This document shows, one piece after another, positions 10,562 through 27,614 of a DNA stretch of 52,304 bases (within the stretch, counting starts at the first letter, position 1; the number at the start of each line of letters is the position of its first letter). The position numbers and the translations under genes are program-made. The notes below the pieces were generated by a model, which saw only the letters and a program-made list of their open reading frames with translations, was not told the origin of the DNA and made no database searches. This stretch comes from Colwellia sp. (lineage in GTDB: Bacteria; Pseudomonadota; Gammaproteobacteria; Enterobacterales; Alteromonadaceae): assembly GCF_013215345.1 (NCBI RefSeq), contig NZ_JABSOV010000022.1, positions 1-52,304 of the forward strand. Reading direction: 5' to 3'.

Positions 10562-10605
10562 AAATTAAATTCTATATGCAGAGCTTTAATTGAAAGCATA
10601 GGTAG

Positions 10606-10679
10606 AACATTCAAATTCAAGGCGGTAGTACGGAGCCTATGACTATAGGTGAGTACTTCCAACGCTGAAGTTGAGTGTT
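10606..10679. repeat. Structured dispersed repeat, copy A (behind guaA)
   Basis: Nested inverted repeat. The outer arm GGTAGTAC (10624-10631) pairs with GTACTTCC (10653-10660) with one mismatch; then GGAG, inner stem CCTAT/ATAGG (10636-10640 and 10645-10649) with loop GACT, then TGA. A more distal imperfect arm joins 10606-10624 to 10663-10679. It has the same GGAG/TGA frame as copies B and C but a different stem sequence. Confidence 0.7.
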
Positions 10680-10699
10680 ATAACAAGCTTACAAAAAAG

Positions 10700-12277
10700 C
10701 TACTCCCATTCGATAGTCGCTGGTGGTTTTCCTGAGATATCGTAAACTACGCGGGAGATACCATCCACTTCATTGATAATACGATTAGAAACCAAGCCTA
10801 GGAAATCATACGGTAAATGTGACCAACGAGCGGTCATAAAGTCGATAGTTTCAACACAACGTAAAGAAACAACCCAATCGTATTTACGCTGATCGCCCAT
10901 CACACCTACAGATTTTACCGGTAAAAATACGGTAAATGCCTGGCTTACTTTTTTGTATAAGTCGTGGTTGTGTAATTCTTCAATGAAAATAGCATCGGCG
11001 CGACGTAATAAGTCAGCATATTCTTTTTTAACTTCACCTAAAATACGTACACCTAAACCAGGTCCAGGGAACGGGTGACGGTAAAGCATGTCGTACGGTA
11101 AACCTAGCTCTAGACCAATTTTACGTACTTCATCTTTGAATAACTCACGTAATGGTTCAACTAGACCCATTTCCATATGCTCAGGTAAACCACCAACGTT
11201 ATGGTGAGATTTAATCACATGTGCTTTACCAGTAGCAGAAGCCGCTGACTCAATCACATCAGGGTAAATAGTACCTTGTGCTAACCACTTAGCATTTTCA
11301 AGTTTCTTTGATTCTTCTTCAAATACTTCAACAAAAACGTTACCAATGATTTTACGTTTTTTCTCTGGATCGCTTTCATCGGCTAAACGATCTAAGAATC
11401 TGTCTTCAGCCTGAACATGAATAATTTTAAGACCAAAATGATCACCAAACATATCCATTACTTGCTTGCCTTCATCTAAACGAAGCAAACCGTTATCAAC
11501 AAATACACAAGTCAGTTTATCACCGATAGCGCGCTGTAATAACATGGCAACAACAGATGAATCAACACCACCAGAAAGACCAAGGATAACTTCATCGTCA
11601 CCTACTTGTGCTTTCATCTTGGCAATAGCATCATCAATAATTGACGCTGAAGTCCAAAGTTTTTCACATTTACAGATATCTACAACAAAGTTTTCTAAAA
11701 TGCGTAAACCTTGTTTTGTGTGCGTAACTTCAGGGTGGAATTGTACCCCGTAAAATTTCTTCTCTTCATTGGCCATTGCGCCAAAAGCACAACTTGCTGT
11801 TTTTGCAACAGTAACAAAGCCTTCAGGAATTGCAGAAACTTTATCGCCGTGACTCATCCAAACGTCTAGTAAGGCATTACCATTATCACCAACGCTGTCT
11901 TCAACTTTGTTGAATAACGCAGATTGGGCAATTAACTCAACAGCAGCATAACCAAATTCTTTATGACTCGAGCTTTCAACGCCACCGCCAAGTTGCTCAG
12001 CCATGGTTTGCATGCCGTAACAAATACCTAATACTGGTACGCCCGCGGTATATACATATTCAGGTGCACGAGGAGAGTTAGCTTCAGTTACTGACTCTGG
12101 ACCACCAGCAAGGATGATACCCGTTGGGTTAAAACCTTTAATTTGCTCTTCAGTTACGTCCCACGACCAAAGTTCACAGTAAACACCAATCTCACGTACG
12201 CGACGTGCGATAAGTTGAGTGTACTGTGAACCAAAATCTAATATTAGTATGCGGTGATCATGAATGTTTTTACTCAT
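10700..12277 (-). CDS. guaA: GMP synthase (glutamine-hydrolysing)
   Basis: 525 residues, the same length as E. coli GuaA. It converts XMP to GMP using ATP and glutamine. The class I glutamine amidotransferase domain has nucleophile C86 (GICYGMQ) with H181 and E183 (QFHPEVTHT). The ATP-pyrophosphatase domain has the PP-loop SGGVDS (235-240), and the C-terminal dimerisation part ends in PPATIEWE. AGGA lies 8 bases before the ATG. It is downstream of guaB on the same strand, but the gap is 243 bases and holds a terminator-like hairpin and a structured repeat, so co-transcription with guaB may be partial. Confidence 0.98.
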   Translation of the reverse strand: MSKNIHDHRILILDFGSQYTQLIARRVREIGVYCELWSWDVTEEQIKGFNPTGIILAGGPESVTEANSPRAPEYVYTAGVPVLGICYGMQTMAEQLGGGVESSSHKEFGYAAVELIAQSALFNKVEDSVGDNGNALLDVWMSHGDKVSAIPEGFVTVAKTASCAFGAMANEEKKFYGVQFHPEVTHTKQGLRILENFVVDICKCEKLWTSASIIDDAIAKMKAQVGDDEVILGLSGGVDSSVVAMLLQRAIGDKLTCVFVDNGLLRLDEGKQVMDMFGDHFGLKIIHVQAEDRFLDRLADESDPEKKRKIIGNVFVEVFEEESKKLENAKWLAQGTIYPDVIESAASATGKAHVIKSHHNVGGLPEHMEMGLVEPLRELFKDEVRKIGLELGLPYDMLYRHPFPGPGLGVRILGEVKKEYADLLRRADAIFIEELHNHDLYKKVSQAFTVFLPVKSVGVMGDQRKYDWVVSLRCVETIDFMTARWSHLPYDFLGLVSNRIINEVDGISRVVYDISGKPPATIEWE

Positions 12278-12329
12278 GGTTGTTTTCCTACTTTAGCGGC
12301 TCATTGATTTAGAGCGATATATAAATAAA

Positions 12330-12362
12330 CAGGCTGAACTAATTTACTAATAGTTCAGCCTG
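12330..12362 (-). terminator. Hairpin in guaB-guaA gap
   Basis: CAGGCTGAACTA (12330-12341) pairs perfectly with TAGTTCAGCCTG (12351-12362) around a 9-base loop. On the minus strand TTTATTTATATA follows, an imperfect T-tract. It can act as a guaB terminator or an attenuator within the operon. Confidence 0.7.
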
Positions 12363-12417
12363 ACAAAAATTCTTTTACTTTCTATTATTTAGAAAGCAAC
12401 AATAGTTTAGTTCGAAG

Positions 12418-12500
12418 CTAGTTAGCACTAGAGCAAAGAAGAAGCACGGAGCTGACGCTAGTCAGTGAGTACTTCTGATGCTGCTATTGTGATTAACTAG
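12418..12500. repeat. Structured dispersed repeat, copy B (behind guaB)
   Basis: Outer arm GAAGCAC (12441-12447) pairs with GTACTTC (12469-12475) with one mismatch; GGAG; inner stem CTGAC/GTCAG (12452-12456 and 12461-12465) with loop GCTA; TGA. A distal arm CTAGTTA (12418-12424) pairs with TAACTAG (12494-12500). It starts about 20 bases after the guaB stop and precedes the hairpin at 12330-12362. Confidence 0.75.
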
Positions 12501-12520
12501 CAAAGAAATAAGCCATTCGA

Positions 12521-25937: not shown

Positions 25938-26162
25938 TGTATTAATCGCCTCTAATTATTGTACCAATGTCACTACTCAGTGAGTATTTTCAAATAGTTA
26001 TCTAACCAAAACCATTGTTTTTTCAGTGTCAATGGCCGGCTATTGCTCAATCGATTACCTTGTTCATGACCATCTATTGTTATTGCTTCTGGTAAATTTG
26101 AAGCGGTAACATAATTAATGAAATTTCAAGTATTTTTCACTATAAAAACAGTGCGCTAATGC

Positions 26163-27335
26163 TTAGATTGATTTGATAGAGATAGTGTCAGTTTTAGGCT
26201 GATCTTTCAATGAACTTATTTCAACGTTTTTTGCAGCATTCTTTGCGCTAATAAATGCACTACGTTTAGTTCTATCTATAACATCACCGGCCAATTGACC
26301 ACAAGCAGCATCAATATCACCACCACGAGTACGCCTAGTAATTACCGTTAAGCCATAGCTTTGTAATACTTTATCAAAACGATCAATTCGAGAATTACTT
26401 GAACGTTTATATGGTGAACCTGGATAAGGATTAAAAGGGATCAAATTGATCTTACTTGGTAAACCTTTTAAAGCATGTGCCAGCTCGTGTGCTTGATCGG
26501 TACTGTCATTAACATGATCAAGCATAACGTATTCTATGGTTGCTTCTTTGTTTGCTTTTGAGCCATCTATATAGCGTCCGGCTGCGGCAAGAAAATCTTC
26601 CAATGGATATTTTTTATTGATTGGCACTAACTCATCACGCAACTTATTATTTGGCGCATGAATAGAGATAGCTAAGGCACAATCAATTTTTTCTTTAAGC
26701 ATGTCTAATGCTGGCACTACACCAGAGGTACTTACCGTTACTCGACGTTTGGACAAACCATAGCCTAAATCGTTCAACATGGTATCAAGCGCAGGTATTA
26801 AATTTTTCATATTTAATAGCGGTTCCCCCATGCCCATCATGACAATGTTGGTTATTGGACGAGTACCGGCAATACGGGTTGCACCGATATCATTGGCAAC
26901 ACGCCACACTTGGCCAATAATTTCAGCCATAGATAAATTGCGATTGAAGCCTTGTTGAGCGGTAGCACAGAAAGTACATTCTAATGCACAGCCAACTTGA
27001 GACGAGACACACAAGGTGGCACGATCATTTTCAGGGATCCAAACAGTTTCAATTTCTTGACCGCCCTCAAGTCTTAACGAATATTTAATAGTTCCGTCAA
27101 CTGACACTTGTTTTTCAGAAATTTCAGGGGCTGTTATCACACAATTGCGCTGTAACTTTTCCCGTAGCTTCTTATTGATATTGGTCATTAGCTCAAAGTC
27201 GCTGTAGCCAAAGTGATAAATCCACTTCATCATTTGATCGGCCCTAAATGGTTTTTCGCCAATAGATTCAAAGTATTCACGCATACCTTTATGATCAAAA
27301 TTAAGTAGGTTTACTTTACTGTTTACATCACTCAT
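26163..27335 (-). CDS. rlmN: Dual-specificity 23S rRNA/tRNA adenine C2-methyltransferase
   Basis: 390 residues from the ATG at 27335 (the frame opens at TTG 27350). RlmN is a radical SAM enzyme that methylates A2503 of 23S rRNA and A37 of some tRNAs. The cluster cysteines C116, C120 and C123 lie in GCALECTFC, and the C-terminal catalytic cysteine lies in DIDAACGQLAG. GAGAG precedes the ATG by about 10 bases. It heads the rlmN-pilF-rodZ-ispG cluster. Confidence 0.97.
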   Translation of the reverse strand: MSDVNSKVNLLNFDHKGMREYFESIGEKPFRADQMMKWIYHFGYSDFELMTNINKKLREKLQRNCVITAPEISEKQVSVDGTIKYSLRLEGGQEIETVWIPENDRATLCVSSQVGCALECTFCATAQQGFNRNLSMAEIIGQVWRVANDIGATRIAGTRPITNIVMMGMGEPLLNMKNLIPALDTMLNDLGYGLSKRRVTVSTSGVVPALDMLKEKIDCALAISIHAPNNKLRDELVPINKKYPLEDFLAAAGRYIDGSKANKEATIEYVMLDHVNDSTDQAHELAHALKGLPSKINLIPFNPYPGSPYKRSSNSRIDRFDKVLQSYGLTVITRRTRGGDIDAACGQLAGDVIDRTKRSAFISAKNAAKNVEISSLKDQPKTDTISIKSI

Positions 27336-27399
27336 ACAACAAACTCTCAATAACTAAAATTAAACTACTCAATAAAGCAGCCTAAAAAACAAGGCGCAC

Positions 27400-27428
27400 A
27401 TTGTACACTTTTCAAGCAACAATCGCAA
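27400..27428 (-). promoter_or_regulatory. Candidate sigma-70 promoter of rlmN
   Basis: On the minus strand TTGCGA (27423-27428), 17 bases, TACAAT (27400-27405). The predicted transcript starts near 27393, about 58 bases before the rlmN ATG. Confidence 0.5.
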
Positions 27429-27474
27429 TTTTACTGGTTATCTTAAGCGAATTTATAATCCACTTAAAATAATA

Positions 27475-27507
27475 AAAGGATTTTACTGACACTCAGTAAA
27501 ATCCTTT
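27475..27507 (-). terminator. ndk terminator
   Basis: A 15-base perfect stem, AAAGGATTTTACTGA (27475-27489) with 27493-27507, 3-base loop, followed on the minus strand by TATTATTTT. It lies beyond the structured repeat that follows ndk. Confidence 0.88.
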
Positions 27508-27527
27508 CAATTTAATTCATGCTTTAA

Positions 27528-27614
27528 GCAAAGCAAGCGAAATGAATTCTAGAAGGCTGCACGGAGTTGACGCTAGTCAATGAGTACAGCCGACAACGAA
27601 ATCGTGAGCTTTGC
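27528..27614. repeat. Structured dispersed repeat, copy C (behind ndk)
   Basis: Outer arm GGCTGCAC (27555-27562) pairs with GTACAGCC (27584-27591) with one mismatch; GGAG; inner stem TTGAC/GTCAA (27567-27571 and 27576-27580) with loop GCTA; TGA. A distal arm GCAAAGC (27528-27534) pairs with GCTTTGC (27608-27614). It fills the gap between the ndk stop and its terminator. Confidence 0.75.

What the first reader, a model, noticed from the sequence alone, without database searches (positions are those of the whole stretch)
10601..27614. Three copies of a covarying structured repeat, each between a stop codon and its terminator
Copies at 10606-10679 (guaA), 12418-12500 (guaB) and 27528-27614 (ndk) share a fixed frame: outer arm ending in AC, GGAG, 5-base stem, 4-base loop, 5-base stem, TGA, outer arm starting with GT. 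The arm and stem sequences differ between copies but pairing is kept: inner stems CCTAT/ATAGG, CTGAC/GTCAG, TTGAC/GTCAA; outer arms GGTAGTAC, GAAGCAC and GGCTGCAC with matching partners. Base changes that keep pairing argue for a selected fold. All three follow minus-strand genes in the same orientation, two of them in guanine nucleotide synthesis and one in NTP balance, and each precedes a rho-independent hairpin. It could be a REP-like DNA element, an RNA 3'-end stabiliser or a small-RNA source.
Basis: partly seen in the sequence, partly recalled or inferred. Interest (0 to 1): 0.72.

Follow-up and report, generated by a model that had tools for sequence, protein, structure and literature searches.

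The report
Stop-codon-anchored DNA hairpin repeats
A family of about 122-letter imperfect palindromes sits at the stop codons of dozens of everyday genes in Colwellia and related bacteria; its paired letters change in step but avoid wobble pairs as strongly as other mismatches, unlike an RNA fold from the same genomes, so it is likely a new family of small, slowly spreading DNA hairpins rather than an RNA device.

Summary
A covariance model finds 32 matches in this genome, 3-37 in four single-contig genomes, and matches in 54 of 147 family genomes (24 of 52 genera). Hosts are mixed housekeeping genes, not specifically guanine genes. Of 91 copies examined, 77 lie at the stop codon of a same-strand gene; in 56 of 76 measured the core begins 38-50 nt after the stop. 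guaB carries a copy in 13 genera. Pairing covaries massively, but G·U is avoided as strongly as any mismatch (0.24 of expectation; A·C 0.35; other 0.30), whereas RNase P from the same genomes gives 0.75 and 0.03. So the pairing looks DNA-level, not RNA-level. Conserved mismatches and a nearly invariant T·G pair show that the architecture is selected. A variant shared between flgI and glyA, with empty sites elsewhere, shows spread. Best reading: a new REP/ERIC-like mobile hairpin family anchored at stop codons. The transposase is unknown; any effect on mRNA is untested.

The parts
10582..10701 (-). Rod (imperfect palindrome) at the guaA stop codon; its 5' base overlaps the stop by two bases
   Evidence: Model R1 match, 95.0 bits; RNA z -4.2, DNA z -4.5; gene end 10700
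12398..12520 (-). Rod directly after the guaB stop codon
   Evidence: R1 match, 97.1 bits; RNA z -4.5, DNA z -2.5; guaB ends at 12521
27512..27634 (-). Rod at the ndk stop codon; it includes the stop
   Evidence: R1 match, 91.7 bits; RNA z -4.8, DNA z -3.0; ndk ends at 27631
10628..10656 (-). Conserved core hairpin, guaA copy
   Evidence: Exact pattern match
12444..12472 (-). Conserved core hairpin, guaB copy
   Evidence: Exact pattern match
27559..27587 (-). Conserved core hairpin, ndk copy
   Evidence: Exact pattern match
10700..12277 (-). guaA, GMP synthase (host gene)
   Evidence: Pfam GATase and GMP_synt_C
12521..13993 (-). guaB, IMP dehydrogenase (host gene)
   Evidence: Pfam IMPDH and CBS
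27631..28062 (-). ndk, nucleoside diphosphate kinase (host gene)
   Evidence: Pfam NDK
10532..10561 (-). Terminator-like hairpin downstream of the guaA rod (a separate feature)
   Evidence: with the sequence
12330..12362 (-). Terminator-like hairpin downstream of the guaB rod
   Evidence: with the sequence
27475..27507 (-). Terminator-like hairpin downstream of the ndk rod
   Evidence: with the sequence

Best explanation
The three copies belong to a dispersed family of about 122-nt imperfect palindromes anchored at stop codons, and it is likely a mobile, REP/ERIC-like repeat whose functional form is predicted to be a folded single-stranded DNA hairpin (or cruciform). Shown: family size and boundaries; anchoring at stop codons; covarying Watson-Crick arms in which G·U is avoided like any other mismatch; conserved, mostly pyrimidine-pyrimidine loops and a nearly invariant T·G pair; copies at guaB and ndk mostly closest to the same locus in other genomes; a variant shared between flgI and glyA; loci without the element. 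Inferred: some protein recognises the core hairpin (CGTC-like tag, TCA/CTCC loop) in single-stranded DNA and has copied the element slowly; copies at stop codons are kept because they do no harm, or because as part of the 3' UTR they change ribosome release or mRNA decay, as reported for ERIC and stop-proximal REP. Neither the enzyme nor the effect was identified.
For: 14 exact core copies in this genome against 0 control; 32 R1 matches here, 37, 17, 11 and 3 in four single-contig genomes at E<=0.1; 54 of 147 family genomes at E<=1e-4. On 14 ungapped copies, 38 of 44 pairs change on both sides; covariation score 0.572 against 0.219 shuffled and at most 0.213 slid. Observed/expected for G·U, A·C, other: element (136 copies, T·G pair left out) 0.24, 0.35, 0.30; RNase P varying pairs (20 genomes) 0.75, 0.03, 0.15. 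Single-step changes in 26 close pairs: G·U 42, A·C 43, other 58. Positions 17-19/104-106, 40/83, 42-43/81-82 and 52-54/69-71 are Watson-Crick in 0-14% of 51 ungapped copies; T49·G75 in 46 of 51. Sharp ends. A long-apex variant at flgI (G032) is 85% identical to one at glyA (G013), and each is closer to the other than to any copy at its own locus. After flgI the next start codon lies within about 80 nt in the empty loci shown, but beyond about 145 nt in filled ones.
Against: Orientation and spacing follow the stop codon (77 of 91 at a same-strand stop; core 38-50 nt downstream in 56 of 76), which is what an mRNA element would do. In the inner 17 pairs alone G·U is slightly above A·C (35 and 27), and in the guaB set too (20 and 17). 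The 19 Y1-transposase loci fetched carry no copy, and two genomes with copies (G094, G098) have no Y1 match. Target-site duplication was not shown. In the 91-copy set no non-orthologous pair is above about 80% identity, so recent mobility is low. Copies at guaB and ndk are kept across species, which argues for a benefit to the host.
Confidence: 0.5

Rival explanations
1. A cis-acting 3'-UTR RNA: the rod folds in the mRNA around the stop codon and sets mRNA stability or ribosome release, through RNase E/III, a ribosome or an RNA-binding protein.
For: At a same-strand stop codon in 77 of 91 copies, with tight stop-to-core spacing; present at guaB in 13 genera; nearly invariant T·G (U·G) pair; stable RNA fold, z -4.2 to -4.8. 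Published relatives act this way: REPs within 15 nt of a stop stall ribosomes (cited in PMC12306157, passages), ERIC destabilises upstream mRNA and its orientation matters (PMC2229807, passages).
Against: G·U pairs are as depleted as A·C and other mismatches overall and not clearly preferred in the guaB, ndk and flgI/glyA sets apart (20/17, 23/30, 16/28), whereas RNase P in the same genomes has 200 G·U and 1 A·C. 12 of 91 copies are reversed. The opposite strand folds equally well.
Confidence: 0.3
2. Replication template switching keeps the arms complementary as a by-product; only the loops and core are selected.
For: Mismatch types are treated alike and double Watson-Crick changes occur at short range (21 in 26 close pairs); the mechanism is published for RNA hairpins (PMC8794818, abstract and part of the introduction).
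Against: The internal loops stay unpaired at fixed places (0-14% Watson-Crick) although switching would mend them too; single changes outnumber doubles in close pairs; the length is fixed with sharp ends.
Confidence: 0.12
3. A small-RNA source: the 3' UTR releases a rod-shaped sRNA.
For: Position between stop and terminator for the three window copies.
Against: No Rfam family matches a copy; only 12 of 78 same-strand copies have a strict terminator within 160 nt; no wobble tolerance.
Confidence: 0.03

Closest known systems
ERIC / IRU / RU-1 repeats (127 bp, enterobacteria; PMC2229807, passages)
   Same: Nearly the same length, long stem-loop, beside genes and transcribed with them, regarded as mobile.
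   Different: Two recalled ERIC primer sequences match 15 of 22 at best (shuffled 13-14; means 11.8 and 12.1 against 11.5 and 11.4); no conserved terminal repeat seen; copies here are only about 50% identical at the median and stop-anchored.
REP elements with GTAG or CGTC tags (PMC3733652, abstract and passages)
   Same: Core is a hairpin with a stem of about 8 bp after a tag of YRTY type (CGTT 25, CGTC 19, CATC 15, TGTC 13 of 91); downstream of genes; the paper finds no dedicated transposase for CGTC REPs.
   Different: The core sits in a rod of about 122 nt; the tag's second base pairs with a covarying partner; internal loop and extra 5-bp stem; tens of copies per genome.
Stop-proximal E. 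coli REPs (PMC12306157, passages)
   Same: Hairpin within about 15 nt of a stop codon.
   Different: There a part of the REPs (446 of 4,072 in that paper) lies so close; here 77 of 91 copies have their base at the stop, in one orientation.
Integron attC sites (recalled)
   Same: Folded single-stranded DNA site after a stop codon, structure kept while letters vary.
   Different: Conserved part is the tip, not the ends; hosts are housekeeping genes; not compared by any search.

Membership tests
Structured RNA family (Rfam-type) | Match to a curated Rfam model | tested here: not met
   No match in the window at gathering; none at a copy in 14 loci (its two hits lie elsewhere); two chance-level hits at E<=5 over window 10400-12700
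Structured RNA family (Rfam-type) | Helices evolve through tolerated G·U wobble | tested here: not met
Structured RNA family (Rfam-type) | Fold present in the transcript | not testable with these tools
   No RNA data held
REP/RAYT system | Y1 (HUH) transposase gene flanked by the repeat | tested here: not met
   PF01797 matches in 11 of 14 genomes; 0 R1 matches in the 19 loci (61,555 bases)
REP/RAYT system | 20-40 bp hairpin with an unpaired GTAG or CGTC tag | tested here: inconclusive
   Core fits loosely; CGTC exactly in 19 of 91, and the tag's second base pairs and covaries
ERIC | Sequence match to the 127-bp consensus | tested here: not met
   Tested with two recalled ERIC primer sequences only, 15 of 22 at best
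MITE | Terminal inverted repeats with target-site duplication | tested here: inconclusive
   Sharp paired ends, but no shared end sequence; duplication not tested systematically
Intrinsic terminator | G+C-rich hairpin followed by a T run | tested here: not met
   In the window the rods are separate from the terminators found downstream (sequences)

The most novel reading that the evidence does not exclude
A mobile system that reads folded single-stranded DNA installs a fixed-length hairpin exactly at stop codons, through its own target choice, and so writes new 3' ends onto housekeeping genes; the rod's conserved mismatch loops, set about one and two helical turns apart, are the address label for an unknown hairpin-binding recombinase or architectural protein.
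Probability: 0.2. Interest if true: 0.75.

Novelty: new variant of a known kind. Interest (0 to 1): 0.5.

Why it matters
Covariation is usually taken as proof of a selected RNA fold. Here a strongly covarying structure fails the simple wobble test (G·U against A·C) that RNase P from the same genomes passes, so it is a worked example of covariation that probably comes from DNA. The family also gives up to about 40 natural, gene-specific 3'-end hairpins per genome in which ribosome release, mRNA decay and single-stranded-DNA recognition can be separated by experiment.

Tried and rejected
Guanine-nucleotide regulon: rejected, because hosts include nqrF, mreB, infB, eno, dnaK, ilvE, tuf, dnaB, dapD, lapB, iscA, acnB, yajC, fadA, acnD, cysN, gspG, groES, argS, metH and flgI besides guaB, guaA, ndk, purH, purL and a guanine deaminase. 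In one search, 78 upstream proteins fell into 41 clusters, one of them (L112) an artefact of a short frame.

Known Rfam RNA: none. REP with a RAYT nearby: none. ERIC: no sequence match. The viral-contig scan gave 39 matches; their printed cores and flanks lack the family's paired inner stem by eye, so they were treated as chance and not used. Terminator stems as a second wobble control gave too few mismatches (6 of 146 pairs). Literature searches on Colwellia with structured RNA (15 of 746 listed), repetitive/palindromic (4 of 4), MITE/repeat element (8 of 532) and hairpins after stop codons (0) showed no title or abstract on this family; only listings were read. A search for wobble and DNA-hairpin covariation gave nothing relevant.

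Selection and rows dropped: the 91 copies come from the window and 80 fetched loci of six genomes, chosen from the stronger matches; some weak ones were not fetched (for example two of 32 in G000, four of 37 in G032). 3 of 94 matches were dropped (a strand duplicate of L125 and two weak matches in L164 and L112). One search dropped 7 of 144 rows and one search dropped 8 (the same plus L333, which is the window's ndk copy again; one search kept L333, so that sequence sits in two of its 26 pairs, and its single-step counts include the T·G pair). One search used only the 51 copies of exactly 122 nt. In one search two same-strand copies had no recognisable core. L112 (stop 62 nt away, frame doubtful) is inside the 78 and the 76 but not among the 77; L169 is same-strand but 48 nt past its stop. 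L116 is counted as reversed although a 69-codon frame ends beside it. Part's output was cut; placement counts rest. The genome search scored at most 150 candidates per genome (24), so copy numbers are lower bounds.
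Full report
What is there. On the minus strand, after guaA, guaB and ndk, the window holds three copies of a rod-shaped imperfect palindrome. The core pattern occurs three times in the window (0 in shuffles) and 14 times in the genome (0 for the reversed control). Aligned without gaps, the 14 copies show paired arms that extend to 122 nt. Beyond the ends pairing falls to chance at once: 0.68 at the last pair, 0.22 outside (91 copies).

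Family and range. A covariance model (R1) from the 14 copies found, at E<=0.1, 32 matches in this genome, 37 in G032, 17 in G036, 11 in G090 and 3 in G111 (the weakest are marginal). The single contig of G032 is 5,373,180 bases, the size I recall for C. psychrerythraea 34H. In 147 genomes of the family, 54 had a match at E<=1e-4, in 24 of 52 genera. With a shorter exact core pattern all 37 same-genus genomes searched (this one included) had at least one match, as did 4 of 24 genomes from other families, each with a single match; the control pattern itself gives 0-4 per strand, so single matches mean little.

Covariation. On the 14 copies, 83% of cells form a standard pair (62% shuffled, at most 42.5% slid), 38 of 44 pairs change on both sides, and the covariation score is 0.572 (0.219 shuffled). 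A pair inside the large internal loop covaries perfectly in the 14 (G-C 10, A-T 4), and two positions further in there is a non-standard switch (C·T 10, T·G 4), which persists in 91 copies (50 and 31).

RNA or DNA? In real RNA, G·U is tolerated and A·C is not. RNase P from 20 of the same genomes has 200 G·U and 1 A·C among 1940 pair cells. The structure there was predicted by RNAalifold, which favours G·U, but the contrast is very large. In the element, leaving out one nearly invariant T·G pair, 91 copies have 85 G·U and 152 A·C; the guaB, ndk and flgI/glyA sets show 20/17, 23/30 and 16/28. Against column expectation, G·U is at 0.24, A·C at 0.35 and other mismatches at 0.30 in 136 copies (inner 17 pairs 0.15, 0.12, 0.17; outer 27 pairs 0.31, 0.49, 0.34); RNase P varying pairs give 0.75, 0.03 and 0.15. 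The bootstrap G·U/A·C ratio is 0.64 (0.50-0.80), not corrected for relatedness. In 26 pairs of close sequences, single steps were 42 G·U, 43 A·C and 58 other, with 21 double Watson-Crick changes. No strand of RNA looks clearly favoured, so the arms seem held at the DNA level, by selection on a DNA hairpin or by template switching. Switching alone does not explain why positions 17-19/104-106, 40/83, 42-43/81-82 and 52-54/69-71 stay unpaired (0-14% Watson-Crick; mostly pyrimidine-pyrimidine, but 17/106 is mixed and 54/69 is A·C) and why T49·G75 remains (46 of 51). In a register shifted by one, the A at 54 can pair with the T at 70 in all 14 first copies. The outer loop (18) lies about 22 nt from the middle one (40), which lies about 12 nt from the innermost (52).

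Placement. Of 91 copies, 77 have the end of a same-strand gene within -26 to +16 nt of the rod's 5' end, two are same-strand but 48 and 62 nt away, and 12 are reversed, mostly lying close to the next gene's start (simple ORF finder, 70 aa or more). The stop-to-core distance in 76 copies is 38-50 nt in 56, 30-35 in 12, 52-63 in 7 and 19 in one. No formal null for placement was computed. This is the strongest point for an RNA or translation-linked role. A strict terminator lies within 160 nt in 12 of 78.

History. guaB has a copy at its stop in 13 of 29 further guaB loci; with the six that makes 13 genera. In G067 the only match lies there. ndk has a match in 18 of 30 Colwellia loci, the last two weak, and some of the others show a decayed core. 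The nearest relative of a copy is at the same locus for 16 of 19 guaB and 20 of 20 ndk copies. At flgI and glyA the picture is younger: cross-locus identities reach 84-85%, including a variant with about 70 extra bases at the apex found at both loci, and many genomes lack the element there. So the family has spread between loci, slowly, and is then inherited.

Known relatives. Small palindromic repeats of 100-200 bp at gene ends are a known kind (ERIC, RUP, Correia; PMC2229807, passages read). ERIC destabilises upstream mRNA, and its orientation is crucial. REPs fall into GTAG- and CGTC-tagged groups, the second without a known transposase (PMC3733652, abstract and passages). REPs within 15 nt of a stop stall ribosomes (cited in PMC12306157, passages). 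Inverted repeats are enriched after stop codons in E. coli, mostly as terminators (PMC6060812, passages). Template switching can maintain hairpins (PMC8794818, abstract and part of the introduction). The present family shows no match to ERIC primers and no copy near the Y1 transposase genes fetched, and it differs by its long fixed rod, its loops and its tight stop-codon anchoring. I file it as a new family of that kind, with unusual features.

Limits. No transcription, binding or mobility data were available. Copy numbers are lower bounds. Gene names rest on the NCBIfam/Pfam hits; no search named the gene after flgI.

Noticed in passing
L149, L402, L442, L447 (flgI and glyA loci of three genomes): Four copies carry about 70 extra bases at the apex, which look like further small hairpins; the same kind of insert occurs at two different genes.
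   Followed up: partly
L440, L426, L443 (glyA downstream): CGTC-tagged stretches (CGTCATTCCCGAAG...CGGGAAT in L440) resembling known CGTC REPs lie near or in place of the rods.
   Followed up: no
L335, L337, L354 (ndk downstream): Where the rod is missing, another sequence framed by TTTGTAG...CTACAAA sits between the ndk stop and the terminator.
   Followed up: no
L347, L352, L355, L357, L360 (ndk downstream): Different or decayed rods at the same place; in L355 the outer arms still pair although the core is lost.
   Followed up: partly
L104 and L138 (after an acyl-CoA dehydrogenase gene): Two copies face each other tail to tail between two genes, conserved between two genomes.
   Followed up: no
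L100:1908-2159 (+): Lysine riboswitch (Rfam) upstream of dapD, which also carries a rod at its stop codon.
   Followed up: no
window 9970-10368 (-): A Rid-family (Ribonuc_L-PSP) gene follows guaA; in genome G090 another Rid-family gene has a rod of its own (L174).
   Followed up: no
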